DNA of 64,000 bases from Bacteroidota bacterium (lineage in GTDB: Bacteria > Bacteroidota > Bacteroidia > Flavobacteriales_D > Crocinitomicaceae). The stretch covers positions 1-64,000 of the forward strand of contig JACPUU010000008.1 in the NCBI GenBank assembly GCA_016192075.1. The letters run 5' to 3'. Positions 45,834-63,022 of this stretch are shown here, piece after piece; position 1 is the first letter of the stretch; each line of letters opens with the position of its first letter. The notes under the pieces are model-generated. The model saw only the letters and a list, made by a program, of their open reading frames with translations, made no database searches and had not been told where the DNA came from. The position numbers and the translations under genes are program-made.

Positions 45834-45872
45834 ATTCAATAGAAATTATGACCATTGACAATAAAAGAATAA

Positions 45873-47688: not shown

Positions 47689-47720
47689 GGTTATTTTACC
47701 ATAAAAACAAAAAATTAAAA

Positions 47721-48353
47721 ATGAAATTAGAAAGATATACTGAACAAGTAAAAAGACTTCCAAAGGAAGGAAAACAAATCATAGGGCAAATACAGGAAGG
47801 GAATATTATTGTATACCAGGCATTCAATCCGCTCATTGCAGAATATGCTGTTGAAAATCAAAAATTTGGCGGACCCAATTATAGCTTCAACCGGATGTCA
47901 TGGATCAAACCTGGCTTTCTGTGGATGATGTACAGGGCTGGCTGGGCAAGTAAAGAGCATCAACAAAAAATACTGGCAATAACATTGCCATTGACGCATT
48001 TTAAAACCATTCTCAGCCAGGCAACCATTTCTTCTTACACGGATGAAATTTATGACACGCAGGAGACCTGGAAACAGGAGCTTGAAAAAACAGAAGTACG
48101 GCTGCAGTGGGATCCGGATCACGATCCAAAAGGTGTGAAACAAGTAAGAAAAGCAATTCAACTTGGAATGAAAGGTGAAATCCTTAAAAAATTCTGCACA
48201 GAGTGGATCGTCAAGATTGAAGACATCACACCGTTTGTAAAAAATGAATTTGAAAAAGTACAGGCAAACCGTTTAGATGATCTCCATATTCCCTATGAAG
48301 AATTGATACTGATTGAAGAACAAAAAATTAATCAAAGACTTGGAATACGTTAA
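47721..48353 (+). CDS. DUF4291 family protein
   Basis: The 210-residue protein has VYQAFNPLIAEYAVENQKFG, the signature SFNRMSWIKPGFLWMMYRAGW and ITLPLTHF, and VRLQWDPDHDPKG, all typical of DUF4291. I recall suggestions that this family has an ADP-ribosyltransferase-like fold, but I cannot confirm that here. No activity is established. It keeps company with NAD/ADP-ribose genes in this operon. Confidence 0.85.
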   Translation: MKLERYTEQVKRLPKEGKQIIGQIQEGNIIVYQAFNPLIAEYAVENQKFGGPNYSFNRMSWIKPGFLWMMYRAGWASKEHQQKILAITLPLTHFKTILSQATISSYTDEIYDTQETWKQELEKTEVRLQWDPDHDPKGVKQVRKAIQLGMKGEILKKFCTEWIVKIEDITPFVKNEFEKVQANRLDDLHIPYEELILIEEQKINQRLGIR

Positions 48354-48370
48354 AACTAAAAGCAAAAACT

Positions 48371-49867
48371 ATGAGAATTAACCCGTTAATGCTGATCGAC
48401 TTTTATAAAGCAGATCATCGCCGCCAATATCCTGAAGGAACTGAAATGGTTTACTCCAATTTCACACCACGTAAATCACGCCAGGCGGGAAATGAAAACC
48501 TGGTGTTTTTTGGTCTTCAGTATTTCGTGAAAGAATACCTTGTTAAACAATGGAACGAAGGCTTTTTTAACCGGCCTAAGACAGAAGTACTTTCTGAATA
48601 CAAACGCAGAATGGACAATGCCCTTGGCAAAGACAGCATTCCCATAGAACATATTGGAGAACTGCATGATCTTGGCTATCTTCCATTGATCGTTAAAGGT
48701 TTGCCTGAAGGAACGATCGTATCACCCAAAATTCCTGTTGTTACTGTTTACAATACACAACCGAAATTTTTCTGGCTCACAAACTACCTCGAGTCACTGA
48801 TGTCAGCTATTTTGTGGAAACCTTCAACAAGCGCTACCACCGCATTCCAGTATCGCAAAGTGTTTAACGCTTATGCACGGGAAACGGTAAGTGACAGTAA
48901 CATAGATTTTGTTTTCTGGCAAGGTCATGATTTCAGTTTCCGGGGCATGAGCGGAATTGAAGATGCATGCATCAGTGCAGCCGGACATTTGCTCTCTTTT
49001 TATGGAACGGACACTGTGCCTGCTATCGATTTTCACGAAATATATTACGGCGGAAATTCTGACAAGGAACTCATTGGCGGAAGTGTCCCTGCAACGGAAC
49101 ACTCTGTTATGTGTATGGGAACCAAGGATAATGAGATTGGTACATTTGAACGGTTGATCAGTGAACTTTATCCTTCAGGAATTGTTTCGATTGTATCAGA
49201 TACCTGGGATTTTTGGCAGGTGATTACTGAATATTTACCGGCATTAAAATCAAAAATTCTTGCCCGAAATGGTAAAGTAGTAATCCGGCCTGACAGCGGT
49301 GATCCGGTGAAAATCATTGTTGGAGACAAAGATGCTGAACCGGGTAGTCCTGAATATAAAGGAGCCATTGAATGCATGTGGGAAGTCTTTGGAGGAACAA
49401 CAACTGACAAAGGATACAAACTCCTTGATGCCCACGTTGGTTTAATTTATGGAGACAGCATTACACTTCAACGTCAAACCGCAATTTTAGAAGGTCTTAA
49501 AGAAAAAGGCTTTGCTTCATTTAATGTGGTGCTTGGAATTGGTTCCTATACTTACGAATATGTTACACGCGATACGTACGGTTTTGCAATGAAAGCAACC
49601 TACGGGGAAGTAAGCGGCGAAGGCCGCAATATATTTAAGGATCCAAAAACAGATGACGGAACCAAAAAATCTGCAAAAGGACTACTTGCAGTACACGATG
49701 TAAGCGGTAACCTGAAACTAAAAGATGAATGCACCTGGGAAGAAGAACGACAAGGGCTTTTACAAACTGTCTTCGAAAACGGAAAAATTGTTAACGAACA
49801 ATCCTTGTCAGAAATCAGAAGCAGAATAAATAAACAACTTGAAGTAGCAACCCTGGTCAATGAATAA
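48371..49867 (+). CDS. Nicotinamide phosphoribosyltransferase-like protein
   Basis: The 498-residue, full-length NAMPT homologue has FYKADHRRQYPEGTEMVYSN at the start, FRGMSGIEDACISAAGHLL and YGTDTVPAIDF, the catalytic-His region VPATEHSVMCMG, and RPDSGDPVKI plus LGIGSYTYEYVTRDT near the PRPP-binding part. NAMPT makes NMN from nicotinamide and PRPP. Phage Namat proteins of the same family use ADP-ribose pyrophosphate and make NAD+ directly. A prs-like gene in the same operon leaves both options open. It overlaps the macrodomain gene by 8 bp. Confidence 0.93.
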   Translation: MRINPLMLIDFYKADHRRQYPEGTEMVYSNFTPRKSRQAGNENLVFFGLQYFVKEYLVKQWNEGFFNRPKTEVLSEYKRRMDNALGKDSIPIEHIGELHDLGYLPLIVKGLPEGTIVSPKIPVVTVYNTQPKFFWLTNYLESLMSAILWKPSTSATTAFQYRKVFNAYARETVSDSNIDFVFWQGHDFSFRGMSGIEDACISAAGHLLSFYGTDTVPAIDFHEIYYGGNSDKELIGGSVPATEHSVMCMGTKDNEIGTFERLISELYPSGIVSIVSDTWDFWQVITEYLPALKSKILARNGKVVIRPDSGDPVKIIVGDKDAEPGSPEYKGAIECMWEVFGGTTTDKGYKLLDAHVGLIYGDSITLQRQTAILEGLKEKGFASFNVVLGIGSYTYEYVTRDTYGFAMKATYGEVSGEGRNIFKDPKTDDGTKKSAKGLLAVHDVSGNLKLKDECTWEEERQGLLQTVFENGKIVNEQSLSEIRSRINKQLEVATLVNE

Positions 49868-50381
49868 AATTGAAGTCATACAAGCCGATATTACGCAGCT
49901 CAATGTTGACGCAATTGTCAATGCTGCTAACAAATCTTTAACAGGCGGTGGCGGTGTTGATGGTGCCATTCATAGGGCAGCAGGTATTGAATTGCTTGAT
50001 GCATGCATAAATTTACGGGGTTGCGAAACCGGTCAGTCAAAAATCACCTCCGGATATCAGTTACCTGCTAAATTTATTATTCACACAGTCGGGCCTGTCT
50101 GGTATGGCGGCACAAAAAATGAAGAGGTACTTTTGAGATCGTGTTATTGGACAGCTTTGGAGTTGGCAATAGAGAACGAAATAAAGACCATTGCATTTCC
50201 GGCAATCAGTACCGGAGCGTATCGTTTTCCATTTGACAAAGCAGCAATGATTGCCTTTCAGACAGTCAATGAGTTTCTACAAAAGCATGACGCTATTCAA
50301 AAAGTATTCCTCGTATTTTACAGTAGCACTGACCTGGATAAATTCAAACGTGTCATTCAAAAACAAAATCCAATCTCATAA
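49860..50381 (+). CDS. Macrodomain protein (ADP-ribose/O-acetyl-ADP-ribose hydrolase type)
   Basis: The 173-residue protein starts IEVIQADITQLNVDAIVNAANKSLTGGGGVDGAIHRAAG (shown in parts: ADITQL, NAANKSLTGGGGVDG, AIHRAAG). It ends with FPAISTGAYRFPFDKAA, so it is of the YmdB/MacroD class, with the catalytic Asn and GGGVDGAI loop. These enzymes remove mono-ADP-ribose from proteins or hydrolyse O-acetyl-ADP-ribose, feeding free ADP-ribose back. It is coupled to the NAMPT-like gene. Confidence 0.96.
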   Translation: MNKIEVIQADITQLNVDAIVNAANKSLTGGGGVDGAIHRAAGIELLDACINLRGCETGQSKITSGYQLPAKFIIHTVGPVWYGGTKNEEVLLRSCYWTALELAIENEIKTIAFPAISTGAYRFPFDKAAMIAFQTVNEFLQKHDAIQKVFLVFYSSTDLDKFKRVIQKQNPIS

Positions 50382-50771
50382 ATGCAAACAGTAAAATTAT
50401 ATCGGCCGGTAGGTCAAATTGAATTTGACCTTATAAAAGCATCCGGCAATAAAAAATTCCCTCCCAGGCTTTCATGGCAGCCCATATTCTATCCGGTTCT
50501 GGACTATGAGTATGCCTGTTCTATCGCAAGAGATTGGAATACAAATGACGATGCAAACGGAAGCGTTGGATATGTTACCATGTTTGAAATTCCCATGGAG
50601 TATTTTAATTCATTTGAAGTGCAAAATGTAGGTGCACGAGATCATAATGAACTGTGGGTGCCTGCTGATGAATTAGAAAAATTCAATGAAATGATCATCG
50701 GCGAAATAACAGTTGTTGCTGCATTTTATGGAGATAACTATACAGGAGAAAAGTTACTAATCAAAAACTAA
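50382..50771 (+). CDS. Small ADP-ribosylation-type (ART-like) protein, uncertain
   Basis: The 129-residue protein reads VKLYRPVGQIEFDLIKASG, FPPRLSWQPIFYPVLDYEYA, ARDWNT and HNELWVPADELEKFNEMIIG. The R/H-Y-x-E order of these segments resembles compact ADP-ribosyltransferase folds, and similar proteins are often labelled ADP-ribosylation/crystallin J1 in annotations. The ELW-PA-E-L segment could hold the catalytic Glu. I cannot say whether it is a transferase, a hydrolase or a binding module. It begins directly after the macrodomain stop. Confidence 0.6.
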   Translation: MQTVKLYRPVGQIEFDLIKASGNKKFPPRLSWQPIFYPVLDYEYACSIARDWNTNDDANGSVGYVTMFEIPMEYFNSFEVQNVGARDHNELWVPADELEKFNEMIIGEITVVAAFYGDNYTGEKLLIKN

Positions 50772-50776
50772 AAACT

Positions 50777-51787
50777 ATGTTCGGAATAAATTACATCAAA
50801 TTTGATTCAATGACACATGTCATTCATTTCAAAAATGGCCAGATCCAAAAGGAAGGTCGGGGGCTATCCTTTTTTTACTTTGCACCCACAAGTTCGATTG
50901 CTGCAATTCCAATGGGAAGTAACGATTTACCTTTCATCTTTAACGAAACAACCAGTGATTACCAGAGCATTTCCATTCAAGGACAGGTTACTTATAAAAT
51001 TGGAAATCCAAAACAACTGGCTGAATTGCTTGACTTTACTGTAAACGCCAATGGTGTCAACAAAAAGAATGAAAGTGAAAAATTAAATCAGCGGATCATA
51101 AATGAAGCACAAACCTCTACTTCGTCATTCATTCACAAACTTGGTTTAAAAGAAGCAATACGCTCTGCAAAGCAAATTGAAGAAAAAATAACGGAAGGAT
51201 TAAAATCTTCGCCTGCTTTAGCGATTTTGGGGATTGATATTTTAAGTATCAGTGTTTTGGCGATTAAAGCAAGCCCTGAAATGACGAGAGCCTTAGAGAC
51301 AGAGACAAGAGAAAAGCTTCAACAGGATGCTGACCAGGCTATTTACGAACGCAGAAATTTTGCGGTGGAACAGGAGCGAAAAATTAAAGAAACAGAATTG
51401 AATACAGAGATTGCCATAGAAGAAAAGAAAAAGCAAATTGATGAGAAACGCATGGAGACTGAAATTCAACAAGCGGACAATGATCAAAAGCTTCGGGAGA
51501 TGAAAGTGAAGGCTGATATTTCTGTTGAAAATCAGCGTAAACTCTTGATTGATCAGAAAACCGCTAACGACCGGAAAGAGGCAGAAACACAAGGATTTGT
51601 TGTAGAGACAACGTTAAAACCATATAAAGATATTGATTGGAAAACGCTGACGGCCTTAAATAATAACCCTGATCCAAGATTCAATATTGCCCTTGCTTTC
51701 CGTGAACTTGCTGAAAATGCAGATAAAATTGGTAATTTGAATATCAGTCCTGAATTGTTGGATTCGTTGTTGTCAGAAAAGAAATAA
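50777..51787 (+). CDS. SPFH/band-7 domain protein
   Basis: The 336-residue protein has an SPFH domain (about 20-175, ISIQGQVTYKIGNPKQL, GIDILSISVLAIKASPEM) and a long charged coiled coil (about 178-270, EQERKIKETELNTEIAIEEK). There is no membrane helix, so it is probably a cytosolic or peripheral scaffold. It is translationally joined (1-bp overlap) to the NAD-kinase-like gene, suggesting a physical complex. Confidence 0.88.
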   Translation: MFGINYIKFDSMTHVIHFKNGQIQKEGRGLSFFYFAPTSSIAAIPMGSNDLPFIFNETTSDYQSISIQGQVTYKIGNPKQLAELLDFTVNANGVNKKNESEKLNQRIINEAQTSTSSFIHKLGLKEAIRSAKQIEEKITEGLKSSPALAILGIDILSISVLAIKASPEMTRALETETREKLQQDADQAIYERRNFAVEQERKIKETELNTEIAIEEKKKQIDEKRMETEIQQADNDQKLREMKVKADISVENQRKLLIDQKTANDRKEAETQGFVVETTLKPYKDIDWKTLTALNNNPDPRFNIALAFRELAENADKIGNLNISPELLDSLLSEKK

Positions 51788-52713
51788 TGGAATTTGAATA
51801 CGCCATAATTGTCAAAAACAAAACCAGGCTCGAAACCCTGGTTGAGCGCTTCAATACTGCTAACCAGGCCCGGTTTTATATTGAACGCTCAGGAGGTAAT
51901 TGGATGGATTATGAGATTGAACACAACAATTTTCATGAATCGCTAACAGCAGTTCAACGGCAACTTTCTACGGTTATCAAGAATAAATTAATTGACCGGA
52001 GTTTTTTGCCTTCTTTTCTTTTTAATAAAAAACAATTGGTCATTGTTATTGGCCAGGACGGGTTAGTTGCAAATACCGCAAAGTATGTGGACGAAATTCC
52101 AATGGTCGCAGTTAATCCTGACGTAGCCCGCTATGACGGGGTTCTTTTGCCGTTTAATCCGGAAAATTTTATCCATGGAGTAAAACAGGTCTTAAAAAAC
52201 GAGTATCATTTTTCAATGGCGACGTTGGCCGAAGCCAAATTGAATGATGGTCAACGAATCCTGGCGTTCAACGAATTGTTTATTGGCGCGTCTTCACACG
52301 TTTCTGCGCGGTACAAAATCAATCACGGAAAAAAATCAGAGGAACATTCTTCGTCCGGTATTATTGTATCTACAAAATCCGGCTCATCGGGTTGGCTAAG
52401 TTCAATATTCAATATGACCTGCGGAATGAATCGTTTTCTAAAAGGAGGAACAGCTGATTCAAGTGATTTTTCAATAAATGATAATCAATTGATGTTTGTT
52501 GTGAGAGAACCCTTTCTAAGTAAAAAAACGCAATCGGGTATAGTGACCGGACTAATTGATTCAAAATCAACGCTAGAGATTGAATCTTTAATGCCGGTAA
52601 ACGGTGTCATATTCTCAGATGGAATTGAAAGCGATTTTCTGAACTTCAATTCGGGTTCAATTGTTACTATTGGAACTGCTCAGGAAAAAGCTAAAATTGT
52701 TTTACCGCGCTGA
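51787..52713 (+). CDS. NAD-kinase-like protein
   Basis: The 308-residue protein looks like a NAD/diacylglycerol-kinase fold: IVIGQDGLVANTAKYV stands where NAD kinases have GGDGT, FNELFIGASS matches the NE region, and IVSTKSGSSGWLSS matches the STPTGSTAY loop. The first Gly of the GGDG motif is changed to Gln, so activity or substrate may differ. It could phosphorylate NAD+, ADP-ribose or a sphingosine-like lipid, or only bind nucleotides. It is the last gene of the operon. Confidence 0.78.
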   Translation: MEFEYAIIVKNKTRLETLVERFNTANQARFYIERSGGNWMDYEIEHNNFHESLTAVQRQLSTVIKNKLIDRSFLPSFLFNKKQLVIVIGQDGLVANTAKYVDEIPMVAVNPDVARYDGVLLPFNPENFIHGVKQVLKNEYHFSMATLAEAKLNDGQRILAFNELFIGASSHVSARYKINHGKKSEEHSSSGIIVSTKSGSSGWLSSIFNMTCGMNRFLKGGTADSSDFSINDNQLMFVVREPFLSKKTQSGIVTGLIDSKSTLEIESLMPVNGVIFSDGIESDFLNFNSGSIVTIGTAQEKAKIVLPR

Positions 52714-53614: not shown

Positions 53615-54682
53615 TTAAGCTTCACCATAAAGTGTTCCACGGATTTCTACCAGAATTTCCTCAATACCGGAAATGTTTGGAAAGTCAGGCAGCTTAGATG
53701 TTTCATAACATGCATCAATGCGACTAATCTGTTCATTTGCCCGCTCCACCAGCTCTTCGTACGAAAAAAGCCCCGAACGTATTTTCAAAAGGTAATCACG
53801 ATCAGGGCGACGAACAATTATTTTGCCTTCCCGTGCAATTTCTTCAGCCATATTCAAAAGTCTGAATGTATGCATCATGTTTTTTGCATCATAGTTCTTA
53901 CCATGATCCAGGGTATTCTCGTAACGAATCTCATTTCGTTTTTCTACCCAATCCCAATACTCCTTATAGTCTTTACAATAGCTGGAATAGCCATCCTTGT
54001 TATAACTCAAAACGGCGAGTGGCTGTATTCCCTTTTCTACCGAACTAAGTGAAATATCATTTGCCTCTGTCCCGGAACAAATTCCTCTCAAAAAGCCCTC
54101 TTTCAACTGGCTCTTATGATAGACTGCGTAAACATCCCGCATGTGATTTATTTTTACAAGTCCACACTCCTGCTGATGGTAATTCATCATCTCAAGCCAA
54201 CTTGCCAAAGGAATAGACCCCTGCCCATAAACCACCGAACAAAAATCCAAAACCGATTTTCGTTCTTTATCAATTGGATTTACAATTTTTTTGTTCAACC
54301 CTTTTGCCTTTTTAATTTGTGTTTGTGCGTATCCTGCAAATGCCTGCTTACAGAGTTTAGACAGGAATAATTCCGGTTTTAATAAATCCATTACCGGGTG
54401 ACGGTAAATCACGCAATCAGAAGGTGTGTTCAGCAACTCCAGAATATTGGGATTGTTTTTTGCCAACAGGTCAACAAAGCGTTTGAGTTCATAATAGACC
54501 TCATCGTTTGTTGCATTGTTTACCTGGTCAACATAATTCAGTCCGTAATACTGCCTTTTCGGAAGCAGAAAAACACCTTTCAGATCAGTGTCTGACTGCG
54601 GAGTATCCAGCCCATAAGCCTTGCTCCCGCTGATACAATCCAGCAGGAGCAGTTTGTTGGTTCTCAGAAATGGAATATCCAT
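53615..54682 (-). CDS. Pol-beta-superfamily nucleotidyltransferase
   Basis: The 355-residue protein has the MNT active site GSKAYGLDTPQSDTDLKGVFL (Gly-Ser followed by D-x-D) near residue 19, then a long helical region. It matches the predicted nucleotidyltransferase group found with RNA-repair genes. Substrate unknown; tRNA or a repair intermediate is possible. It follows the next nucleotidyltransferase by 3 bp, so the two are one operon. Confidence 0.82.
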   Translation of the reverse strand: MDIPFLRTNKLLLLDCISGSKAYGLDTPQSDTDLKGVFLLPKRQYYGLNYVDQVNNATNDEVYYELKRFVDLLAKNNPNILELLNTPSDCVIYRHPVMDLLKPELFLSKLCKQAFAGYAQTQIKKAKGLNKKIVNPIDKERKSVLDFCSVVYGQGSIPLASWLEMMNYHQQECGLVKINHMRDVYAVYHKSQLKEGFLRGICSGTEANDISLSSVEKGIQPLAVLSYNKDGYSSYCKDYKEYWDWVEKRNEIRYENTLDHGKNYDAKNMMHTFRLLNMAEEIAREGKIIVRRPDRDYLLKIRSGLFSYEELVERANEQISRIDACYETSKLPDFPNISGIEEILVEIRGTLYGEA

Positions 54683-54685
54683 GTT

Positions 54686-55459
54686 TTAATAACCTTTTAC
54701 TATTTGTATAAATAATGCGTCCAAATCCACTTCTTTCTCTTTTCGCCCGCGCAACGATTCAAAAACTTCTGCAGCCCTGGTCAATTCAGTCAAAATAAAT
54801 TCATTCAATGCCGTTTCAGCAAGGTGAATATAACTTTCTGTTTTGCCCGATTTTAAAACGACCAGTTCTTTTATACGTGCCTTCAGATTGGTATCAAAAT
54901 CAAGTTCGTTGACCATTGTTTCAAAAACAATGGGAGGAACAGCGTCTTTTTCCACAATCCATTTACAGGCAAGGCTTGCACGAAGAGCATAAAAAAGTTT
55001 TTTTAACTTAATTTCTTCCTTTCCATCCACATCAGCAAATGTATTTTTAGCCATTCCCAGGTAATGATTCATTGCCGCAATGGGCGCAAAACATTTTTCT
55101 GAATATTCTTTCAAAAGAGCAGCAATTCCCTTTTCTTCCCGGTAAACCACCGGGGATTGAACACGTTCCAGCAAAGCACCGTTTGATTTCCACATCAGCT
55201 TCAGGCATTTTTTGATATCCCAGCCGGTTATATCAAGCTCACCATCTTCAGACATAAATTCAATAGTATCCTTTTTTTCATTCAAACTCAAATACCAATC
55301 CGGATCATGACGATAAATCATCCGTACATCATAATCACTGTCTGGTGAAGGAAATCCCCAGGCACGTGACCCTGTTTCACACGCATAAAGAATCTTTACA
55401 CCAAAGGTATTTTCTATTTCACTGAGTTTATCTTGTATTCTCTTTTCCATTTTGTTCAT
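54686..55459 (-). CDS. YcgL-type Pol-beta-superfamily nucleotidyltransferase
   Basis: The 257-residue protein (MNKMEKRIQDKL start; MEKR at 55450 is also possible) has GSRAWGFPSPDSDYDVRMIY, the G-S-x9-D-x-D catalytic set, then LDITGWDIKKCLKLMWKSNG. It is of the same broad family as the next gene but from a different subfamily. A longer ORF to 55645 would add a hydrophobic stretch unlike the family. Neighbouring tRNA genes make an RNA substrate attractive, though unproven. Confidence 0.82.
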   Translation of the reverse strand: MNKMEKRIQDKLSEIENTFGVKILYACETGSRAWGFPSPDSDYDVRMIYRHDPDWYLSLNEKKDTIEFMSEDGELDITGWDIKKCLKLMWKSNGALLERVQSPVVYREEKGIAALLKEYSEKCFAPIAAMNHYLGMAKNTFADVDGKEEIKLKKLFYALRASLACKWIVEKDAVPPIVFETMVNELDFDTNLKARIKELVVLKSGKTESYIHLAETALNEFILTELTRAAEVFESLRGRKEKEVDLDALFIQIVKGY

Positions 55460-55558
55460 TCTTAATCTGACAAGTATCCAAGATACCATTTTATCAAATA
55501 GCCTGATTTGTTTCATCTTCTTTTTTACATGTGTAAGAAAGAACAACAGCCCGGGAAA

Positions 55559-55588
55559 GAGCAACAAAATCTTCACTTGTTGTTGCTC
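55559..55588 (-). repeat. tRNA-spacer hairpin, type T, copy 1
   Basis: AGCAACAA/TTGTTGCT stem followed by CTCCGGACTCTTGC. The same hairpin plus tail (CTCCATACTCTTGC) recurs at 59677-59705 between tRNA-Pro and tRNA-Ser. A second perfect hairpin, ATCTGTTC-TTTT-GAACAGAT, lies at about 55614. Confidence 0.75.
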
Positions 55589-55682
55589 CGGACTCTTGCA
55601 ATAATCCGGCACTGATCTGTTCTTTTGAACAGATAAACACATCAAGAGACAGTTGCGTGCTTCAGTGAATACTGCAGTGCCC

Positions 55683-55823
55683 TGGTGGAAGTGACAGGAT
55701 TCGAATGCCGACGCTAAACGGTCGGCATCCTGATTGCAGCTCTTTGCAGCACATCAGGACCTATAAGCTCCCTAAGGAGACCTGATCTACAGTCAGGCGA
55801 GCCACCAGTTGCTCAACACTTCC
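55683..55823 (-). tRNA. tRNA-Tyr (GTA) interrupted in the T-loop
   Basis: Read on the minus strand: acceptor GGAAGTG/CACTTCC is perfect and CCA is encoded; the D-arm has GAGC/GCTC; anticodon arm CCTGA-CTGTAGA-TCAGG gives GTA; the variable arm is long, as for tRNA-Tyr. The T-stem is ATAGG/CCTGT, but the T-loop T-TCGAAT is split by 54 nt (55705-55758). Without the insert the gene is 87 nt including CCA. Confidence 0.85.
55705..55758 (-). repeat. 54-nt double-hairpin insertion in tRNA-Tyr
   Basis: On the minus strand the insert is a CCTGAT...ATCAGG hairpin (with CTGC inner pairing) followed by a perfect ATGCCGAC/GTCGGCAT hairpin with an 8-nt loop. It leaves both T-stem halves intact. Confidence 0.85.
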
Positions 55824-55994
55824 AATTATTGCACAATGAGTGGGCGAAGTGTCTAACCAACTAACTGATTATCTGTGCAAATACAAGTATTTAACAGCAT
55901 TAAATAGCAAGAACGAACTACTTTGAAATTTTGATCCAAAATCGATCATTCTTTTGGTAAAAAATGGCAAATGATTATTATGGTTAAGCCGAAT

Positions 55995-56345
55995 TTATCT
56001 CTTTTTTGCCTTCTTTTTACTTGCTTTTGCCTTGGAATTGAATTCCAAACATAACCCAACCCAATAGTCAAAAGCCTTTTTGGTCTTCATTCCTTCCTTG
56101 CTAATGAAAACATAACCCTTCATTGGCTTTCCCGTAAAATCCATTTGCCGACAACCGACTTTCTCAAGTACGATTTCATCCATCAGCGGATCGATCCGAC
56201 ACATCATCTCATCCTTCACAACGCCAATACACATTTTTCCATTTAGCATGAAGCAAACTCCACCAAACATATTTTTCTCCTCTACTTTTGAAAGATCTGA
56301 GAGTGATTCTCGTATTCTATCGACTAATTTTTCATCAAACGCCAT
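55995..56345 (-). CDS. TfoX N-terminal-domain protein
   Basis: The 116-residue protein has NMFGGVCFMLNGKMCIGVVKDEMMCRI (in parts: MFGGVCFMLNGKM, IGVVKDE), the TfoX/Sxy N-terminal fold, and GYVFISKEGM. The C-terminus is a Lys-rich tail. Stand-alone TfoX_N proteins are common in Bacteroidota and need not be competence factors. It lies at the end of a 4-gene minus-strand operon (VOC, two SRPBCC, TfoX). Confidence 0.88.
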   Translation of the reverse strand: MAFDEKLVDRIRESLSDLSKVEEKNMFGGVCFMLNGKMCIGVVKDEMMCRIDPLMDEIVLEKVGCRQMDFTGKPMKGYVFISKEGMKTKKAFDYWVGLCLEFNSKAKASKKKAKKR

Positions 56346-56353
56346 GAATAAAT

Positions 56354-56800
56354 TTATTTCTTTTCTGCAAATTGTTTCAGGCCTGTAAAGAATTTTTTTA
56401 TCCCGATATCAGATTTTTTGCGAATCATCAATGCATCCATCAATTTACCTAAAGCACCAAACTTTACCGCATATTCCATTACTTGTTTCACTTTTGTCTG
56501 AGCTCCCACTTTTTCAAATGAATAGGTATGTTTTAATCCTTTTATCGGAAAAGAGCAATCTGTTAATTGATAGCTAAGTATTTCCTTGGGCTTAAATTCG
56601 GTAATTTTTTCTTCAAACCAATTTTTTCCATCTAACATCTCAACTTTGCGCTTCGCACCAATTCCTGTTTTCTCAATCGAAATCAAGGTTGATTTTTTTA
56701 CTGTCGGATCATACTGATCCAACAAACCAGGAGTCACCAAAATCTCCCAAATCTTTTCAATGTCGGCATTGATCGTAATTTCGTTTAATATTTTTCCCAT
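56354..56800 (-). CDS. SRPBCC-family (START-like) protein
   Basis: The 148-residue protein has INADIEKIWEILVTPGLLDQYDP and KVKQVMEYAVKFGALGKLMD, the helix-grip fold used for small hydrophobic ligands. It overlaps in type with the next gene and is only 6 bp away, so the pair arose by duplication. Ligand unknown. Confidence 0.85.
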   Translation of the reverse strand: MGKILNEITINADIEKIWEILVTPGLLDQYDPTVKKSTLISIEKTGIGAKRKVEMLDGKNWFEEKITEFKPKEILSYQLTDCSFPIKGLKHTYSFEKVGAQTKVKQVMEYAVKFGALGKLMDALMIRKKSDIGIKKFFTGLKQFAEKK

Positions 56801-56806
56801 TCCTGA

Positions 56807-57265
56807 TTACTTTTCTGCCAAGGTTTTTATGTTGGAAAGAATTTTACCTTGAATCCTACCCATCATTTTTTTCATCATCAAAACATTCATTATTTTCGCT
56901 ACGAATGTTGCGGGTACATAGTACGATTCGTTAATTATTCTGGTTTTATCTTCATCGATTTTTTCAAGGTAGAAGCAAAAACGGGGGTCTTTAAGCATTT
57001 TTGCCATCCCCATTGTGTCGTTCTCAATAACCCAAACTGTTTTTTTCTCATGAACAAGCTCAACCAGTTTTTCAGTCATGGTTCCTTTTCTTCCTTTATT
57101 GTCCATTTCACAAGTTCTTGTTTCACCTTGCTTATCCATTCGTCCCGTTGCTCTTATAACACCGGGATTTATTTTGTGAAGTAGGTTTATATCAGTAATT
57201 ATTGTCCAAATGCCCCCGATAGGTGCATTAATGGTGATTTCGTTTCGTGCTTGTAATTTGCCCAT
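56807..57265 (-). CDS. SRPBCC-family (START-like) protein
   Basis: The 152-residue protein has ITINAPIGGIWTIITDINLLHKINP and INESYYVPATFVAKIMNVLM, again a helix-grip fold. It is related to the neighbour at 56354. It is in the operon facing the GlxA-type regulator, so its expression may respond to the same signal. Confidence 0.85.
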   Translation of the reverse strand: MGKLQARNEITINAPIGGIWTIITDINLLHKINPGVIRATGRMDKQGETRTCEMDNKGRKGTMTEKLVELVHEKKTVWVIENDTMGMAKMLKDPRFCFYLEKIDEDKTRIINESYYVPATFVAKIMNVLMMKKMMGRIQGKILSNIKTLAEK

Positions 57266-57274
57266 GGAATAATT

Positions 57275-57643
57275 TTATTTCATTGAGTGAAGCGCCACTT
57301 TGTTTCCTTCTGTGTCTTCAAAGTGCGCCATGAAACCATTTGGGCCGATTGCAGTTTTTGGCATCAGAATTTTTCCACCTGCCTTTTCAACTTTTGAAAG
57401 CGCATTACTCAAATCGTCACCTCCATTTAGATAAATTAAAGACCCCTTAGTTGAAGGATCATAACCCTTTGCCTCAGTAATACAACCTCCAATACCATTT
57501 TGAAGATCGGCAGGAAAGAAAGCCGATTTCATTCCAGGCATTTCCATCGGCTGCATTTTAGCACCTAAAATGGTCTCGTAAAAATTCTTTGCTCTATCCA
57601 AATTTTTTACCGGTATTTCAAACCAGTTGATTGCGTTTTTCAT
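57275..57643 (-). CDS. VOC-family (glyoxalase/bleomycin-resistance-like) protein
   Basis: The 122-residue protein has WFEIPVKNLDRAKNFYETIL at the start and GFMAHFEDTEGNKVALHSMK at the end, the typical VOC repeat with metal ligands expected at these ends. It would bind or transform a small molecule. First gene of the minus-strand operon, divergent from the GlxA-type gene. Confidence 0.92.
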   Translation of the reverse strand: MKNAINWFEIPVKNLDRAKNFYETILGAKMQPMEMPGMKSAFFPADLQNGIGGCITEAKGYDPSTKGSLIYLNGGDDLSNALSKVEKAGGKILMPKTAIGPNGFMAHFEDTEGNKVALHSMK

Positions 57644-57677
57644 TTCTCTTTTTTTTATGATTAATATAGTACAAAAA

Positions 57678-57720
57678 TATTGTCCAAATCAATAAATCAG
57701 GCAGGGGAAATTAGACAATA
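57678..57720. promoter_or_regulatory. Inverted repeat between VOC operon and regulator
   Basis: TATTGTC (57678-57684) is mirrored by GACAATA (57714-57720) in the divergent promoter region, a candidate operator for the AraC-type regulator. Confidence 0.4.
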
Positions 57721-57727
57721 TGAAGGG

Positions 57728-57758
57728 TTGATATGGACAGCTCTTTTTGTTATCTTTG
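57728..57758 (+). promoter_or_regulatory. Promoter of the GlxA-type regulator
   Basis: TTG (57728-57730), 20-bp spacer, TATCTTTG (57751-57758), a full match to TAnnTTTG, 13 bp before the start codon. Confidence 0.75.
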
Positions 57759-57771
57759 AAAAAAAATCACG

Positions 57772-58770
57772 ATGAATCATCTTACCATTCTTGTTCCTGA
57801 TGGCCAACCTAATCCAATTACCATCATCAGTACTTACATGGCATTTATGCAGGCTGAAAAGCATCTTGTAATGAGAGGAGGAAAGCCCGTTTTTGAAAAA
57901 ATTGTACTTGCCGGCATTTCGGAAAAAGTAGACGTGTATGGGGGCTTGTTTTCTGTTACGCCTATTGAGGATATATCAAATGTAAAAAATACGAATCTTG
58001 TCGTTATCCCGGCATTTTTACCACAAACCAATACTGAGCAAAACATAAAGCAAAATAAAAAAATTGTGCAATGGATTGAAGACCAATATAAAAATGGAGC
58101 AGAAGTGGCTAGCTTATGCACGGGCGCATTTATACTTGCATCTACAGGATTGGTCGACGGAAAAAAGTGTTCTATACATTGGAATGATGCGAATGCTTTT
58201 AGGCAAATGTTTCCTAAGGTCAATTTGGTCGCGGATCATGTGATTACGCATGAACACGGTTTATATACTAGCGGTGGAGCATTTTCATTCATGAATCTGG
58301 TTCTCTATTTGCTAGAGAAATATTACGGAAGAGAAATGGCAATTCTTTGCTCAAAGCTTTTTCAGGTTGATATTGATCGCAGCAGTCAATCTCCATACAT
58401 CGTTTTTAATGGACAAAAATCTCATGATGACGAAATCGTCTTAAAGGCTCAGGAGTTTCTCGAAAAAAGCTCAATGGATAAGTTTTCAGTAGAAAAACTT
58501 GCGAAAGAGCTTGCTGTCAGTAGGAGAAACCTTGACAGGCGTTTCTTTAAGGCAACCGGAAATACTCCGACTGAATATTTACAACGTGTAAAGGTTGAAT
58601 CTGCGAAAAAACAACTTGAAATCTCGCGTAAAACAGTCCAGGAAATAATGTATGAAACAGGATATTCTGATTTGAAAGCGTTCCGCGAAGTGTTCAAAAA
58701 AGTGACGGGACTTTCTCCTTTGGAGTATCGAAACAAATACAATAAAGAGGCTGTTACTGCAAGTTCATAG
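57772..58770 (+). CDS. GlxA-type regulator: DJ-1/PfpI domain plus AraC HTH
   Basis: The 332-residue protein has a DJ-1/PfpI amidase-like domain (about 1-185) with the nucleophile-elbow motif ASLCTGAFILASTGLVDGK, and a C-terminal AraC HTH pair (about 225-325: KFSVEKLAKELAVSRRNLDRRF, VQEIMYETGYSDLKAFREVF). Such regulators often control the neighbouring divergent operon, here VOC-SRPBCC-SRPBCC-TfoX. The Cys of the elbow is present. Confidence 0.92.
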   Translation: MNHLTILVPDGQPNPITIISTYMAFMQAEKHLVMRGGKPVFEKIVLAGISEKVDVYGGLFSVTPIEDISNVKNTNLVVIPAFLPQTNTEQNIKQNKKIVQWIEDQYKNGAEVASLCTGAFILASTGLVDGKKCSIHWNDANAFRQMFPKVNLVADHVITHEHGLYTSGGAFSFMNLVLYLLEKYYGREMAILCSKLFQVDIDRSSQSPYIVFNGQKSHDDEIVLKAQEFLEKSSMDKFSVEKLAKELAVSRRNLDRRFFKATGNTPTEYLQRVKVESAKKQLEISRKTVQEIMYETGYSDLKAFREVFKKVTGLSPLEYRNKYNKEAVTASS

Positions 58771-58832
58771 TAGTCGTCCCAACTAAATCCTTCACAATGG
58801 AATTTCCGATATTTCAAAGAACTCAGCCACTC

Positions 58833-59081
58833 TTATCTATGCATTCGATGCGACTTTGATGTCTTTCTAACACGCTGTTTTCTCCGTTTTGGTTTTTTAA
58901 TTCTTAATTCGGCTTCCGGGAAAGGATTTAAGCTTTGCTGTCGTGCAATGGTGATGTAAAAAAGTTTAGTTAGTTTTCGTACTGTCTTTGCAACAGTTTC
59001 AGCCATTTCATCGCTCATGTTTTCCCAACCGGGCATACTTTTTACTTTTTTCGCAGTAGTAATGTGCTCTTCTTCTATCAT
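58833..59081 (-). CDS. Small basic protein of unknown function
   Basis: The 82-residue protein starts MIEEEHITTAKKVKSMPGWENMSDE, is helical, and ends with a highly basic tail (KKPKRRKQRVRKTSKSHRMHR) suggesting nucleic-acid binding. No family is recognised. It lies just after tRNA-Leu(TAG) in the same direction. Confidence 0.5.
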   Translation of the reverse strand: MIEEEHITTAKKVKSMPGWENMSDEMAETVAKTVRKLTKLFYITIARQQSLNPFPEAELRIKKPKRRKQRVRKTSKSHRMHR

Positions 59082-59256
59082 AAGTGCAAATTATTTCAAA
59101 TTTTGCTTTCTTCCGCAATTATAAAAATCCATCACTTAATTGGAGAGAAGTCGAACCAAAAATCACCCCTTTAAACCAGCAAATACCGACATTTTCAAAC
59201 AAAAAATGGCAGAAGACATCGTCAACCGCCATTTAGTTCGAACTAAAGTTCGACAG

Positions 59257-59330
59257 TACAGCGGGAGAGACTCGAACTCTCAAAATCCTGATCCTAAGTC
59301 AGGCGCGTATGCCAATTCCGCCACCACTGC
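59257..59330 (-). tRNA. tRNA-Leu (TAG) with short variable loop
   Basis: The 74-nt cloverleaf pairs GCAGTGG with CCGCTGT, has a Leu-type D-arm (TGGCGGAATTGGCATACGC), anticodon arm CCTGA-CTTAGGA-TCAGG and T-arm GAGAG-TTCGAGT-CTCTC. The variable loop is only ATTTT, whereas bacterial tRNA-Leu normally has a long variable arm. Confidence 0.85.
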
Positions 59331-59334
59331 ATTT

Positions 59335-59408
59335 CAGAGCGAGAATCAGGGCGAAAGTGAGGAGTTTGTTTTCTCCGCTCTCACACAGTTTCTCATTCTG
59401 ACCTTTCT
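59335..59408 (-). repeat. tRNA-spacer hairpin, type S, copy 3
   Basis: CAGAGCGAGAATCAGGGCGAAAGTG... pairs with ...CGCTCTCACACAGTTTCTCATTCTG. It is related to the two hairpins after tRNA-Leu(TAA) at 42.8-43.0 kb and fills the gap between tRNA-Cys and tRNA-Leu. Confidence 0.8.
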
Positions 59409-59409
59409 G

Positions 59410-59482
59410 AGACAAGGATGAGATTCGAACTCATACAAAACGGGTTTGCAATCCGTTGCCTTCGCCATTCAGCCACCTTGTC
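59410..59482 (-). tRNA. tRNA-Cys (GCA)
   Basis: The 73-nt gene has perfect acceptor GACAAGG/CCTTGTC, anticodon loop TTGCAAA, T-arm ATGAG-TTCGAAT-CTCAT and discriminator T. The closing pair of the anticodon stem (A31-C39) is mismatched. Confidence 0.93.
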
Positions 59483-59489
59483 AAACACA

Positions 59490-59547
59490 GAGCGAGAAAG
59501 AGAACGAGAGCGCAATCTCTTCGCTCTGATTCTCTTTCTCATTCCGA
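59490..59547 (-). repeat. tRNA-spacer hairpin, type S, copy 4
   Basis: CAGAGCGAGAAAGAGAACGAGAGCG pairs with CGCTCTGATTCTCTTTCTCATTCCG. It lies between tRNA-Pro and tRNA-Cys. Confidence 0.8.
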
Positions 59548-59553
59548 CCTTTG

Positions 59554-59653
59554 TCTGAGAGACAGGACTCCCTGTCTGCCTGTTGCAGACAGGCAGGGAA
59601 CCTGCAACCTCCTGCTCCCAAAGCAGGAAAACGACCAATCGTTATGCTCCCAG
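59554..59653 (-). tRNA. tRNA-Pro (TGG) interrupted in the T-loop
   Basis: Acceptor CTGGGAG/CTCTCAG pairs fully (one G-T), the D-stem is AACG/CGTT, and anticodon arm CCTGC-TTTGGGA-GCAGG gives TGG. T-stem GCAGG/CCTGT surrounds a loop TTC-GAGT that is split by 27 nt at 59571-59597. Without it the gene is 73 nt. Confidence 0.85.
59571..59597 (-). repeat. 27-nt hairpin insertion in tRNA-Pro
   Basis: On the minus strand it reads CCTG then CCTGTCTGC-AACAG-GCAGACAGG, a perfect 9-bp stem. It shares a CCTG start, a CTGCAA core and a CAGG end with the first hairpin inserted in tRNA-Tyr. Confidence 0.85.
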
Positions 59654-59676
59654 TTTTCAGCAACCGTTCGGGCAAC

Positions 59677-59705
59677 AGCAACAGAATCCTTCTCCTACTG
59701 TTGCT
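59677..59705 (-). repeat. tRNA-spacer hairpin, type T, copy 2
   Basis: AGCAACA/TGTTGCT stem followed by CCATACTCTTGC, homologous to 55559-55588. It ties tRNA-Tyr to the Ser-Pro-Cys-Leu array. Confidence 0.75.
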
Positions 59706-59727
59706 CCATACTCTTGCTGATTTTTTG

Positions 59728-59810
59728 CGGAAGGAGTGAGACTCGAACTCACAAATCCTTACAGATCGCCTGTTTTCAAGACAGGGTCCTCATCCAGCCG
59801 GTTTCCTTCC
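59728..59810 (-). tRNA. tRNA-Ser (TGA)
   Basis: The 83-nt class II gene has acceptor GGAAGGA/TCCTTCC, anticodon arm CCTGT-CTTGAAA-ACAGG, T-arm GTGAG-TTCGAGT-CTCAC and discriminator G. The D-stem is weak (about 2 bp). Confidence 0.93.
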
Positions 59811-59822
59811 TAATTTTTCGCG

Positions 59823-59854
59823 CACAAAAAAAGCACCTCGTTCGGGAGGTGCTT
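59823..59854 (-). terminator. Intrinsic terminator of mini-gene B
   Basis: AAGCACCTC/GAGGTGCTT stem with a T run on the minus strand, 23 bp past the stop of the 42-residue ORF and before the tRNA array. Confidence 0.85.
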
Positions 59855-59876
59855 CATACTAATTCTGTTTATGTAA

Positions 59877-60005
59877 TTATATAAGCTTATCAACCTCCCT
59901 GATTTTTATTTCGGGCGAATACAGATAACACGGCAGGGAAAGTCCGTTCAAAAGAGCGGTCTGCTTTTGTATTGTCATTACGCTATGTCTGTTTGTCTGT
60001 TTCAT
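59877..60005 (-). CDS. Mini-gene B: possible 42-residue peptide (or sRNA)
   Basis: ATG at 60005 opens a 42-codon frame containing LLNGLSLPCYLYSPEIKIRE. It has its own promoter (60024-60054) and a strong terminator, making a unit of about 190 nt. The peptide resembles mini-gene A (60303-60416): LNGLSLPCYLYSPEI against LQDLYPCSLLPQI. No known family; a non-coding RNA is the alternative. Confidence 0.45.
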   Translation of the reverse strand: MKQTNRHSVMTIQKQTALLNGLSLPCYLYSPEIKIREVDKLI

Positions 60006-60023
60006 AATTTAATCTAATCGGCA

Positions 60024-60054
60024 CAAAGGTGAAAACAGTTTTTGAATTACGCAA
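60024..60054 (-). promoter_or_regulatory. Promoter of mini-gene B
   Basis: On the minus strand TTG (complement 60052-60054), 20-bp spacer, CACCTTTG (complement 60024-60031), one mismatch to TAnnTTTG. Confidence 0.55.
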
Positions 60055-60237
60055 GCAAAAATTAAAATTATTTTTATGATTATCAAATAGTTAATTCGAT
60101 TTTTTAGGCAAAGAAATTCCTGTCCGCTTCATCGCGAATCTGTACATTCCGGCAACTGACTGTCTCCCAATTGGCTTTGTGTTTCAACACTCGTTTTCTA
60201 TTTTTTTACAATCCCGATTTTATCATTCAAATTTTTC

Positions 60238-60270
60238 AAAAAAAAAGCGTCCAACTTTCATTGGACGCTT
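60238..60270 (-). terminator. Intrinsic terminator after mini-gene A / RtcB
   Basis: AAGCGTCCAA/TTGGACGCTT 10-bp stem with a long T run on the minus strand. Confidence 0.9.
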
Positions 60271-60302
60271 TGCGATTCATCTATAATTACGTTTATTCTA
60301 TT

Positions 60303-60416
60303 CTATAACTGCAATTTTTTGAGCACACAACGTCCTGCTTCCGCATAAATTTGCGGGAGTAGCGAACAGGGATATAAATCCTGCAGAACGTTTATATGTT
60401 GTACTCTTTTTACCAT
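60303..60416 (-). CDS. Mini-gene A: possible 37-residue peptide
   Basis: ATG at 60416 opens a 37-codon frame (MVKRVQHINVLQDLYPCSLL, then PQIYAEAGRCVLKKLQL). It starts 42 bp after the RtcB-like stop, on the same strand, and is followed by a strong terminator. It resembles mini-gene B around a P-C-x-L core. Confidence is limited by size. Confidence 0.4.
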   Translation of the reverse strand: MVKRVQHINVLQDLYPCSLLPQIYAEAGRCVLKKLQL

Positions 60417-60457
60417 TTAAATTTAGTTTCGGAATTTTTCCTCTTTGCATCAGACGT

Positions 60458-61915
<1,458 letters not shown>

Positions 61916-62019
61916 TTAAGTGGTACTGCGCAGTGGAATTGCGTAGATGAAATTATTTTTTAAAAGGGCTAATTTTAGTGGGGTTCAGGCCCATCAAAAA
62001 AATAATTTTCAAAAAAAGC

Positions 62020-62051
62020 TTGCATGCTGTTTCTTTTATGCTTTACCTTTG
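62020..62051 (+). promoter_or_regulatory. Promoter of the second RtcB operon
   Basis: TTG (62020-62022), 21-bp spacer, TACCTTTG (62044-62051), a full match to TAnnTTTG, identical in -7 box to the ppk1 promoter. Confidence 0.7.
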
Positions 62052-62094
62052 GCCCCGGAATATTCTTCCCAAAATTAAGAAAAGGAGGATCACC

Positions 62095-62139
62095 ATGACA
62101 GAGCGCACTCTTATATCACCTATGCCACTCACTGCGTAA
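62095..62139 (+). CDS. Possible 14-residue leader peptide
   Basis: AAAGGAGG lies six bases before an ATG that opens MTERTLISPMPLTA. Such a strong Shine-Dalgarno is rare in Bacteroidota, where most genes here have none. AGAGCGC near its start can pair with GCGGCTCT just after its stop. It sits in the long leader of the rtcB-associated operon and could control it. Confidence 0.5.
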   Translation: MTERTLISPMPLTA

Positions 62140-62269
62140 AACGCGGCTCTGCATTTCTTTGTATTTCATTTACGATTTAACGAATTCAGACCGCGGAAGA
62201 TTTCACGTTTCGTGTTCTTGTTTACGCTTTGCCGGCAATCTCACTGATTTCTAACAAAACAAAATAACA

Positions 62270-63022
62270 ATGAACACAAACGATTGGGCGTATTACGCCC
62301 ATTGCAGTCGTTTGAAAACAAAACGAACCAAAAAACGATTGCAGAAAAAAGATCAGGAAAAACAACTGATCAGCATGGCCAAAGAACTCTTTGCTCTTTA
62401 CGAAAAGCAGCGGAATCGTGAATACGAAAAACTGGAGAACCCTTATCAAAAAGGATGGCTTCGGACCTTTGTTCTACGCGATGAAACCACGCTTTTACCA
62501 ACGGCTACTGTTTTTGAAAAAATACTGAATGTCATTAATACCATTCAGTACAGCGAACGGCGCGATTTTAAAATAAAACGCCGGCGTTTCAGAAAACGAG
62601 TCTATGTGAAAAAGCCACAGGAACTGACGGTTTTGAATGAATTGCAGCTTAACCGTTTGTTCAATGAAAAAGAACGGAACTATTTTGAACGGGTTGAGCA
62701 TTTTGATCAAAAAAGGCGCACCACCGTGGTGCGGTATCATTTTATGCAACCCTGGCGATTCAGGTTGAAAGTGAGTCCTTACATGATCACACATGTGCGG
62801 ATTGTAGACGCCGAATCAACACAAAAAATTTCAGAAATCCGTTCACGGTTGCTGGGTCAAAACCTGGAGGCACGCATGTGGAAAATGCTCTATGGCTATG
62901 CTGCAAACAAACGATGGAGGTGTGAACCACCTCCCAGGTACAAACATTTTATTAAATCAGAGCCCGTTCACAAACTAAAGCGGGACTATGAAACAGAAAA
63001 ATTATATGGGAATAAAAATTAA
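62270..63022 (+). CDS. Basic protein of unknown function, RtcB operon
   Basis: The 250-residue protein is strongly basic (RLKTKRTKKRLQKKDQEKQ, FKIKRRRFRKRVYVKK, KRRTTVVRYHF) and has no signal peptide or known motif. The charge suggests RNA binding. Its last 17 bases overlap the start of the downstream RtcB gene in another frame, so they are translationally coupled and may work as substrate adapter and ligase. Confidence 0.75.
   Translation: MNTNDWAYYAHCSRLKTKRTKKRLQKKDQEKQLISMAKELFALYEKQRNREYEKLENPYQKGWLRTFVLRDETTLLPTATVFEKILNVINTIQYSERRDFKIKRRRFRKRVYVKKPQELTVLNELQLNRLFNEKERNYFERVEHFDQKRRTTVVRYHFMQPWRFRLKVSPYMITHVRIVDAESTQKISEIRSRLLGQNLEARMWKMLYGYAANKRWRCEPPPRYKHFIKSEPVHKLKRDYETEKLYGNKN

What the first reader, a model, noticed from the sequence alone, without database searches (positions are those of the whole stretch)
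55683..55823. tRNA-Tyr(GTA) with a 54-nt double-hairpin insertion in the T-loop
All stems of the tRNA, including both sides of the T-stem and encoded CCA, are intact, yet the T-loop is split by two neat hairpins. Decay would normally hit stems too. It could be a removable intervening sequence, a tolerated extension or a very young pseudogene.
Basis: seen in the sequence. Interest (0 to 1): 0.8.

Follow-up and report, generated by a model that had tools for sequence, protein, structure and literature searches.

The report
Spare tyrosine tRNA split by palindromes
A spare tyrosine tRNA gene in an RNA-repair region of a Bacteroidota bacterium has been split in its T-loop by a mobile-looking pair of DNA palindromes, a repeat that also lies against tRNA loops in other Bacteroidota, so it is most likely a recently broken copy and not a spliced tRNA.

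Summary
In detail: window 55683-55823 (minus strand) is a complete tRNA-Tyr(GTA), all stems paired, with a 54-nt insert of two hairpins between positions 53 and 54. It is not the only tRNA-Tyr: an intact core gene lies 35 kb away. The interrupted gene belongs to an accessory tRNA set beside RNA-repair genes (RtcB, two RlaP, WYL; here also Ro60). In 7 of 7 relatives where this tRNA-Tyr was recovered it has no insert. The insert belongs to a REPIN-like family of paired palindromes, matched in 23 of 396 Bacteroidia genomes (own included). Of 35 other loci examined, 19 have it flush in a T-arm, 20 have a complete tRNA within 900 nt and 14 a small GIY-YIG gene nearby; the search model favoured T-loops. 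Leaving the pair out gave a complete tRNA in 0 of 24 testable loci, but did so here. Best reading: a young palindrome insertion that disabled, or made non-decoding, a dispensable tRNA. Splicing has no support; tolerated function is not excluded. The interest lies in the palindrome/tRNA/GIY-YIG association and in repair-linked accessory tRNAs that carry hairpin inserts.

The parts
55683..55823 (-). Accessory tRNA-Tyr(GTA) gene, complete body, interrupted in the T-loop
   Evidence: Fold; ARAGORN calls tRNA-Tyr when the insert is left out in a script; aligned with 7 uninterrupted homologs
55706..55759 (-). 54-nt insert between tRNA positions 53 and 54: REPIN-like palindrome pair
   Evidence: CM R1 1.9e-17 and R2 7.4e-11, the window being a seed of both; same pair in independent genomes
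55728..55759 (-). Hairpin 1 (TCCTGAT..ATCAGGA)
   Evidence: Arms covary across 21 members: 5 of 7 pairs with changes on both sides
55706..55727 (-). Hairpin 2 (TGCCGAC..GTCGGCA), flush with T54
   Evidence: 3 of 7 pairs with changes on both sides
55875..55885 (-). Promoter-like box TGTATTTGCAC, 51 nt upstream of the tRNA
   Evidence: Only exact match to TNTATTTGCAC in the window; with one mismatch 8 matches, 8.87 expected by chance. Weak evidence; the likeness to Bacteroidota promoter boxes is recalled
55608..55682 (-). Hairpin RNA candidate that follows the tRNA, with ACTGTCTCTTGA
   Evidence: ACTGTCTCT invariant in 8 of 8 aligned loci; hairpin read by eye
54686..55645 (-). RlaP nucleotidyltransferase ORF (true start probably inside)
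   Evidence: PF10127, 263 bits, residues 66-314
53615..54682 (-). Second RlaP-like nucleotidyltransferase
   Evidence: PF10127, 80 bits
60458..61912 (-). RtcB RNA ligase
   Evidence: PF01139, 129 bits
59256..59330 (-). Accessory tRNA-Leu(TAG)
   Evidence: core Leu(TAG) elsewhere
59409..59482 (-). Accessory tRNA-Cys(GCA)
   Evidence: core Cys elsewhere
59729..59810 (-). Degenerate Ser(TGA)-like accessory tRNA
   Evidence: Below-threshold tRNA-Sec hit, 31 bits; resembles the array Ser(TGA) genes by eye

Best explanation
A member of a Bacteroidota family of paired palindromes (REPIN-like) inserted, recently in evolutionary terms, directly 5' of TTCGAA in the T-loop of an accessory tRNA-Tyr gene. 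That gene belongs to a spare tRNA set linked to an RtcB/RlaP RNA-repair locus. Shown: the insert, its family, the uninterrupted site in relatives, the intact core tRNA-Tyr. Inferred: the pair is not removed; it separates T54 from the T-stem so that the D-loop/T-loop contacts cannot form normally; the product is therefore unstable or at best a tRNA-like RNA that does not decode; the cell lives on the core tRNA-Tyr. How the palindromes move (single-stranded hairpin transposition, help from GIY-YIG nucleases, or repair-coupled copying) is inferred only weakly.
For: Uninterrupted accessory tRNA-Tyr in 7 of 7 relatives, followed in all by the same motif RNA. Same pair in 6 of 8 pattern hits, all six Bacteroidota, and matches in 23 of 396 Bacteroidia genomes, own included (a few of the weak ones are probably chance). 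Pair covariation over 21 members: 97.3% of cells paired, 8 of 14 pairs changed on both sides against 2.7 in shuffles. The pair occurs dispersed outside tRNAs (G246: 89 matches at E <= 0.01, both strands counted; flanks). A complete tRNA lies within 900 nt in 20 of 35 loci; leaving the pair out gave a complete tRNA in 0 of 24 loci that have a T-loop motif. Core tRNA-Tyr intact in the same genome. Window copy has G37 where 7 of 7 homologs and the core gene have A37, and lacks one D-loop base. In G010 another accessory tRNA-like RNA carries a hairpin-2-like insert at 53/54, with an uninterrupted copy about 290 nt downstream (by eye).
Against: All stems are intact and a promoter-like box stands upstream, as expected of a gene still in use. 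No expression data. Only one strong copy of the pair in this genome, so no donor in the same genome was found. R1 includes the T-loop, so over-represents T-loop sites; with the T-loop-free model R2 only 11 of 26 places lie against copied tRNA sequence, and a phylum-wide R2 scan matched 9 of 394 genomes.
Confidence: 0.72

Rival explanations
1. The accessory tRNAs of this RNA-repair locus are not decoding tRNAs but tRNA-like RNAs (decoys or sensors for tRNA-cutting nucleases, or Ro60/RtcB ligands). They need only a tRNA-like outside, so hairpins in the loops are tolerated or even useful.
For: Several accessory RNAs carry loop inserts: Phe at the anticodon loop in G000 and G022 but not in G046, Lys in G058, Phe D-loop palindrome in G058, T-arm inserts in G010, G059, G008, G054 and G022 (by eye). 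Linkage to RtcB, RlaP and WYL in the two genomes looked at, and to Ro60 and a weak YrlA match in the window genome. [quoted passage not shown]
Against: Ro60 found in only 1 of 10 genomes. The accessory tRNAs that ARAGORN calls mostly look canonical. Relaxed selection explains loop inserts as well.
Confidence: 0.15
2. Tolerated extension: the tRNA works with the two hairpins as an extra arm next to the T-stem.
For: All stems paired; promoter-like box.
Against: Insert parts T54 from the stem; G37 instead of A37; no other interrupted but complete tRNA among 24 loci tested with ARAGORN (L063 of G010 by eye has an uninterrupted sister copy).
Confidence: 0.07
3. Removable intervening sequence: the hairpins are cut out and RtcB, encoded about 5 kb away, joins the halves.
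For: RtcB, RlaP and a KptA-family gene lie in the same window; the halves stay paired in the T-stem.
Against: No bulge-helix-bulge at the junctions in the fold; no catalytic intron among Rfam matches; the pair occurs dispersed outside tRNAs; a complete tRNA lies near the touched fragment in 20 of 35 loci. A splicing endonuclease gene was not sought.
Confidence: 0.05
4. Assembly artefact or chimaera.
For: One genome only, reads not available.
Against: Insert matches a real palindrome family and lies at the same tRNA site as other members; the tRNA and the RNA that follows it align with relatives on both sides of the insert.
Confidence: 0.01

Closest known systems
REP / REPIN palindromes, GTAG and CGTC superfamilies (PMC3733652, abstract and passages read)
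   Same: Short palindromes, often paired in opposite orientation, dispersed; CGTC repeats reported from Bacteroidetes among others, without a dedicated transposase
   Different: CGTC is paired inside the stem here, not an unpaired tag; part of the copies abut tRNA loops or lie near GIY-YIG genes; only one strong copy in this genome
Anabaena trn operon, a silent spare set of 26 tRNAs derepressed with rtcB under translational stress (PMC10272220, abstract and passages read)
   Same: A second tRNA set beside the housekeeping genes, tied to RtcB (there by a shared repressor)
   Different: Here tRNAs lie at the RtcB/RlaP/WYL locus itself; several carry loop inserts; regulation unknown
rsr-yrlBA-rtcBA RNA repair operon of Salmonella (PMC7790460, passages read)
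   Same: RtcB with Ro60 and tRNA-like RNAs at one locus
   Different: A WYL regulator and no RtcR noticed among the ORFs read (no RtcR search made); tRNA-like genes with anticodons; only a weak YrlA match
Archaeal or eukaryotic tRNA introns, including unusual positions (PMC4090602, search listing and abstract start only)
   Same: Insert within a tRNA gene
   Different: No bulge-helix-bulge; the insert's family also exists outside tRNAs

Membership tests
REPIN / REP palindromes | Two palindromes in inverted orientation | tested here: met
   hp1 GACG..GTC and hp2 GAC(C)..GCGTC in A3
REPIN / REP palindromes | Dispersed multicopy family within a genome | tested here: met
   G246 89, G479 31, G511 21 matches at E <= 0.01, both strands counted. 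In the window genome only one strong copy and weak single hairpins
REPIN / REP palindromes | Unpaired GTAG or CGTC tag | tested here: not met
   The GTC of CGTC pairs with GAC in the stem; definition from PMC3733652
REPIN / REP palindromes | RAYT transposase in the genome | not tested
Functional bacterial tRNA-Tyr | Cloverleaf stems, GUA anticodon, long variable arm | tested here: met
Functional bacterial tRNA-Tyr | Uninterrupted T-loop and A37 | tested here: not met
   54-nt insert, G37
tRNA intron (bulge-helix-bulge) | Helix with two bulges across the exon-intron junctions | tested here: not met
   In the predicted fold the hairpins close at the insert's first and last bases
Group I or II intron | Catalytic core | tested here: not met
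   54 nt; no such Rfam match up to E 1 in 54500-64000
YrlA (bacterial Y RNA) | Rfam RF02553 gathering score | tested here: not met
   No match at the finding; 32.9 bits against 69 at L012:1233-1298
Permuted tRNA | 3' half precedes 5' half | tested here: not met
   Normal order

The most novel reading that the evidence does not exclude
The RtcB/RlaP/WYL locus encodes its own spare tRNA-like set used under tRNA damage as decoys or repair substrates. Hairpins inserted into their loops, here a palindrome pair in the T-loop of tRNA-Tyr, are kept because they make the RNA resistant to, or attractive for, tRNA-targeting nucleases; and the palindromes reach tRNA loops as a site-directed element that inserts before TTC with the help of linked GIY-YIG nucleases.
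Probability: 0.1. Interest if true: 0.8.

Novelty: new variant of a known kind. Interest (0 to 1): 0.5.

Why it matters
It turns an apparent T-loop intron into a likely insertion and shows that uninterrupted sites in relatives and sister copies can decide such cases. The wider pattern is testable: a REPIN-like family in Bacteroidota, part of whose copies abut TTC in tRNA T-loops, duplicated tRNA ends, and GIY-YIG genes lying among them, for a kind of palindrome said in print to lack a dedicated transposase (CGTC repeats, PMC3733652). The accessory tRNA set beside RtcB and RlaP raises the question of whether bacteria keep spare tRNAs for RNA-damage stress.

Tried and rejected
Y RNA: only a weak YrlA match outside the window, none at the finding. 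Ro60 as a constant partner of the tRNA set: found in 1 of 10 genomes, rejected as a defining partner. Viral origin of the insert: two IMG/VR pattern scans gave 1 and 0 places, the one not in a tRNA. Plasmids: no match. Phages: two short matches to the 5' part only, one annotated tRNA-Tyr. Loose pattern in the family: 13 of 240 genomes matched, but by eye only the window and G079 are the pair. Two of 8 pattern hits in genome contigs (L039, L042) look like coding chance matches and were dropped. Encoded CCA as a sign of foreign origin: dropped. A scan of the phylum with the T-loop-free model R2 gave 9 of 394 genomes but scored only 14 candidates per genome, so I do not use it as a frequency. L064 and L068 look like chance hits in coding DNA; they stay in the denominator of 35, and the 23 of 396 is to that extent an upper figure. 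The 35 loci are not all independent: L048 and L069 lie in one tandem array, L053 and L072 in another.

Literature: searches (T-loop insertions, GIY-YIG at tRNAs, REP/RAYT in Bacteroidetes; Y RNA, RtcB-linked tRNA sets) showed, in the 10 to 20 papers listed by each and as far as titles and abstract starts tell, none on this palindrome/tRNA/GIY-YIG association or on tRNA sets inside RtcB/RlaP loci in Bacteroidota. The library is open-access only, and Burroughs and Aravind 2016 was not held, so this is no proof of novelty.

Full report
Observation. On the minus strand, window 55823-55683 reads as a 141-nt tRNA-Tyr with anticodon GTA. The fold of the sequence as it stands contains every tRNA stem and, inside the T-loop, two hairpins (-56.3 kcal/mol, z -3.28, 1 of 200 shuffles as good). 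The insert is 54 nt, 55759-55706; by itself it folds far better than shuffled letters (0 of 500). ARAGORN and Rfam at gathering threshold list no tRNA here; when a script leaves the insert out, ARAGORN calls tRNA-Tyr(gta). The alignment with homologs puts the insert between G53 and T54.

Not the only tRNA-Tyr. A search of the genome (4.65 Mb, 22 contigs, 99.9% complete) found 42 tRNA matches, the finding not among them. A Thr-Tyr-Gly-Thr cluster, with Trp nearby, carries an intact tRNA-Tyr at C8:91137-91219. Core copies of the other isotypes seen near the finding (Leu-TAG, Cys, Phe, Ser-TGA) exist too. So the interrupted gene is an extra one.

What the gene belongs to. Searching 200 genomes of the same family with the 141 nt gave matches in 9, the own genome included. 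Seven relatives (L014-L020) carry a homologous tRNA-Tyr inside dense arrays of tRNAs, some of them unusual. The eighth match, G079, is different and is treated below. In all seven the T-loop is uninterrupted, and in all eight loci, the window included, the tRNA is followed by a stretch with an invariant ACTGTCTCT. In G058, a one-contig genome, the array lies on the same strand as, and next to, RtcB, two RlaP nucleotidyltransferases and a 747-aa protein with a sub-threshold RING match; a divergent WYL regulator follows. Neighbours of the other six arrays were not read. The window genome has the same gene kinds, spread over about 15 kb (C8:53.6-68.8 kb): RlaP x2, the finding, tRNA-Leu, tRNA-Cys, a degenerate Ser-like tRNA and RtcB in the window; just beyond it an RF-1-domain gene that resembles PrfH (name recalled), a tRNA-Phe with a roughly 50-nt anticodon-loop insert, a Ro60 (TROVE) gene and a WYL regulator. 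Ro60 was found in only 1 of 10 genomes. I therefore call the set accessory tRNAs of an RNA-repair locus; a role in stress is inferred from the neighbours and from the Anabaena trn operon (PMC10272220, abstract and passages).

What the insert is. The eighth match, G079, was the same double hairpin at the same T-loop site in a partial tRNA-Val copy, with a GIY-YIG gene between it and an intact tRNA-Val. A covariance model from the window and these six (R1) gave 57 matches in 23 of 396 Bacteroidia genomes, own included, a few places counted on both strands. R1 contains the T-loop and so favours such sites. I examined 35 loci besides the window: the 6 plus the 29 for which one search gave DNA. In 19 of 35 a T-loop and a T-stem pairing 4-5 of 5 lie flush with the insert. 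In 20 of 35 a complete tRNA lies within 900 nt, 17 upstream and 3 downstream; by eye its letters match the fragment at the insert, weakly so in L061 and L074. A GIY-YIG match (tblastn, two queries from L038 and L048) lies within about 500 nt in 14 of 35. Leaving the insert out could be tried in the 24 loci with a T-loop motif (two of them cut off by a contig end) and gave a complete tRNA by ARAGORN in none of the 24, but did so in the window. By eye L063 (genome G010) is an exception that ARAGORN does not call: an accessory tRNA-like RNA with a hairpin-2-like insert at 53/54, with an uninterrupted copy about 290 nt downstream. In G479 four copies follow in tandem, the first three 404 bp apart and the fourth 593 bp on.

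The paired palindromes are held together by pairing more than by letters: over 21 members 97.3% of cells pair, 8 of 14 pairs show changes on both sides (2.7 in shuffles), and the covariation score is 0.277 against 0.097 (most members were found with a structure-aware model, so the counts lean that way). The pair is also dispersed: 89 matches in G246, 31 in G479 and 21 in G511 at E <= 0.01, both strands counted, and the flanks of several are plainly not tRNA. Of 26 places found with the T-loop-free model R2, 11 lie flush with a copied tRNA stretch of 10 nt or more, against 7 of 596 random places in the same loci; three of the 11 are one tandem array, and several of the 26 also seeded R2. The letters right of the pair are TTC in 13 of 26 and TT in 16 of 26; among the 11 at tRNA copies TTC in 9 (flanks). 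Sites at tRNAs include T-loop TTCGA, D-loop TTAGAATG of Asp and TTCAATGG of Arg. In G393 the pair appears, by eye, in the other orientation relative to the tRNA piece, again before TTCGAA. The window genome has one strong copy; weaker single hairpins of the same style, E 0.0025 and worse, lie among others behind 5S rRNA genes (that these are 5S genes is my reading of the sequence).

Most likely history and state. A palindrome pair inserted before TTCGAA in the T-loop of this accessory tRNA-Tyr after the split from the relatives seen here. Shown: uninterrupted site in relatives, family membership of the insert, redundancy of the gene. Inferred: no removal, loss of normal T-loop/D-loop docking, loss of decoding. 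Further signs of relaxed constraint are G37 where 7 of 7 homologs and the core gene have A37, and a one-base shorter D-loop. Against this stand the intact stems and a promoter-like box 51 nt upstream, the only exact match in the window, though matches with one mismatch are no more frequent than chance. These fit a young event, but they leave room for a functional, non-decoding RNA.

Rivals. Splicing: no bulge-helix-bulge, no catalytic intron, and the same pair sits in non-tRNA DNA and in tRNA fragments near complete copies. RtcB nearby is suggestive only. Tolerated extension: possible, little support. Decoy or sensor RNA: supported indirectly by other loop inserts in accessory RNAs. These are Phe anticodon loop in G000 and G022 but not G046; Lys anticodon arm in G058; a palindrome in the D-loop of Phe in G058; T-arm inserts in G008, G010, G022, G054 and G059 (by eye). 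Relaxed selection explains these as well.

Compared with the known. It works most like a REPIN insertion. It fails one defining mark of the tagged REP superfamilies, the unpaired GTAG or CGTC tag (PMC3733652, abstract and passages), and a transposase was not sought, so I do not file it as a CGTC REP. Novelty is judged as a new variant of a known kind.

Noticed in passing
L012:1503-1627 (C8, just outside the window): Accessory tRNA-Phe(GAA) with a roughly 50-nt insert in the anticodon loop after GAAA; G022 has a similar insert at the same place, G046 has none.
   Followed up: partly
L084, L086 (own genome, C19:76 kb): tRNA-Asn followed by tandem GIY-YIG genes, each running into a degraded tRNA-Asn copy with another palindrome (TCCCGC..GCGGGA); the first copy has one in the anticodon arm and one in the variable region.
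   Followed up: partly
L048/L069 (G479:C12:505695-507176): Tandem units of palindrome pair, tRNA-Asp 3' end and GIY-YIG gene, three at 404-bp spacing.
   Followed up: partly
L089:10660-11240 minus strand, L012:1000-1760 minus strand: Repeated motif like GGTCAA(N)CTTACTTC or GTCGTA(N)GTTACTTC between tRNA-like pieces, possibly an undescribed small RNA family of these loci.
   Followed up: no
window 43740-52713: Plus-strand run of NrtR-Nudix, Prs-like, NADAR, KptA/Tpt1, 2OG oxygenase-like, phosphatase-like, DUF4291, NAMPT-like, Macro, SPFH and NAD-kinase-like genes: an NAD/ADP-ribose and RNA-end processing cluster next to the RNA-repair locus (Prs, oxygenase, phosphatase and NAD kinase names are by eye).
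   Followed up: partly
own genome C2:330269-330440: Repeated 5S-rRNA-like tail plus terminator plus hairpin unit, 137 bp apart, in the style of hairpin 1.
   Followed up: no
window 55585-55823 minus strand: Among phage records the 5' part of the accessory tRNA-Tyr matches a Rhodococcus phage Grayson tRNA-Tyr (query 5-44, 92.7%) and an uncultured 462-kb phage (86%), which might hint at a phage source of the spare tRNA set.
   Followed up: no
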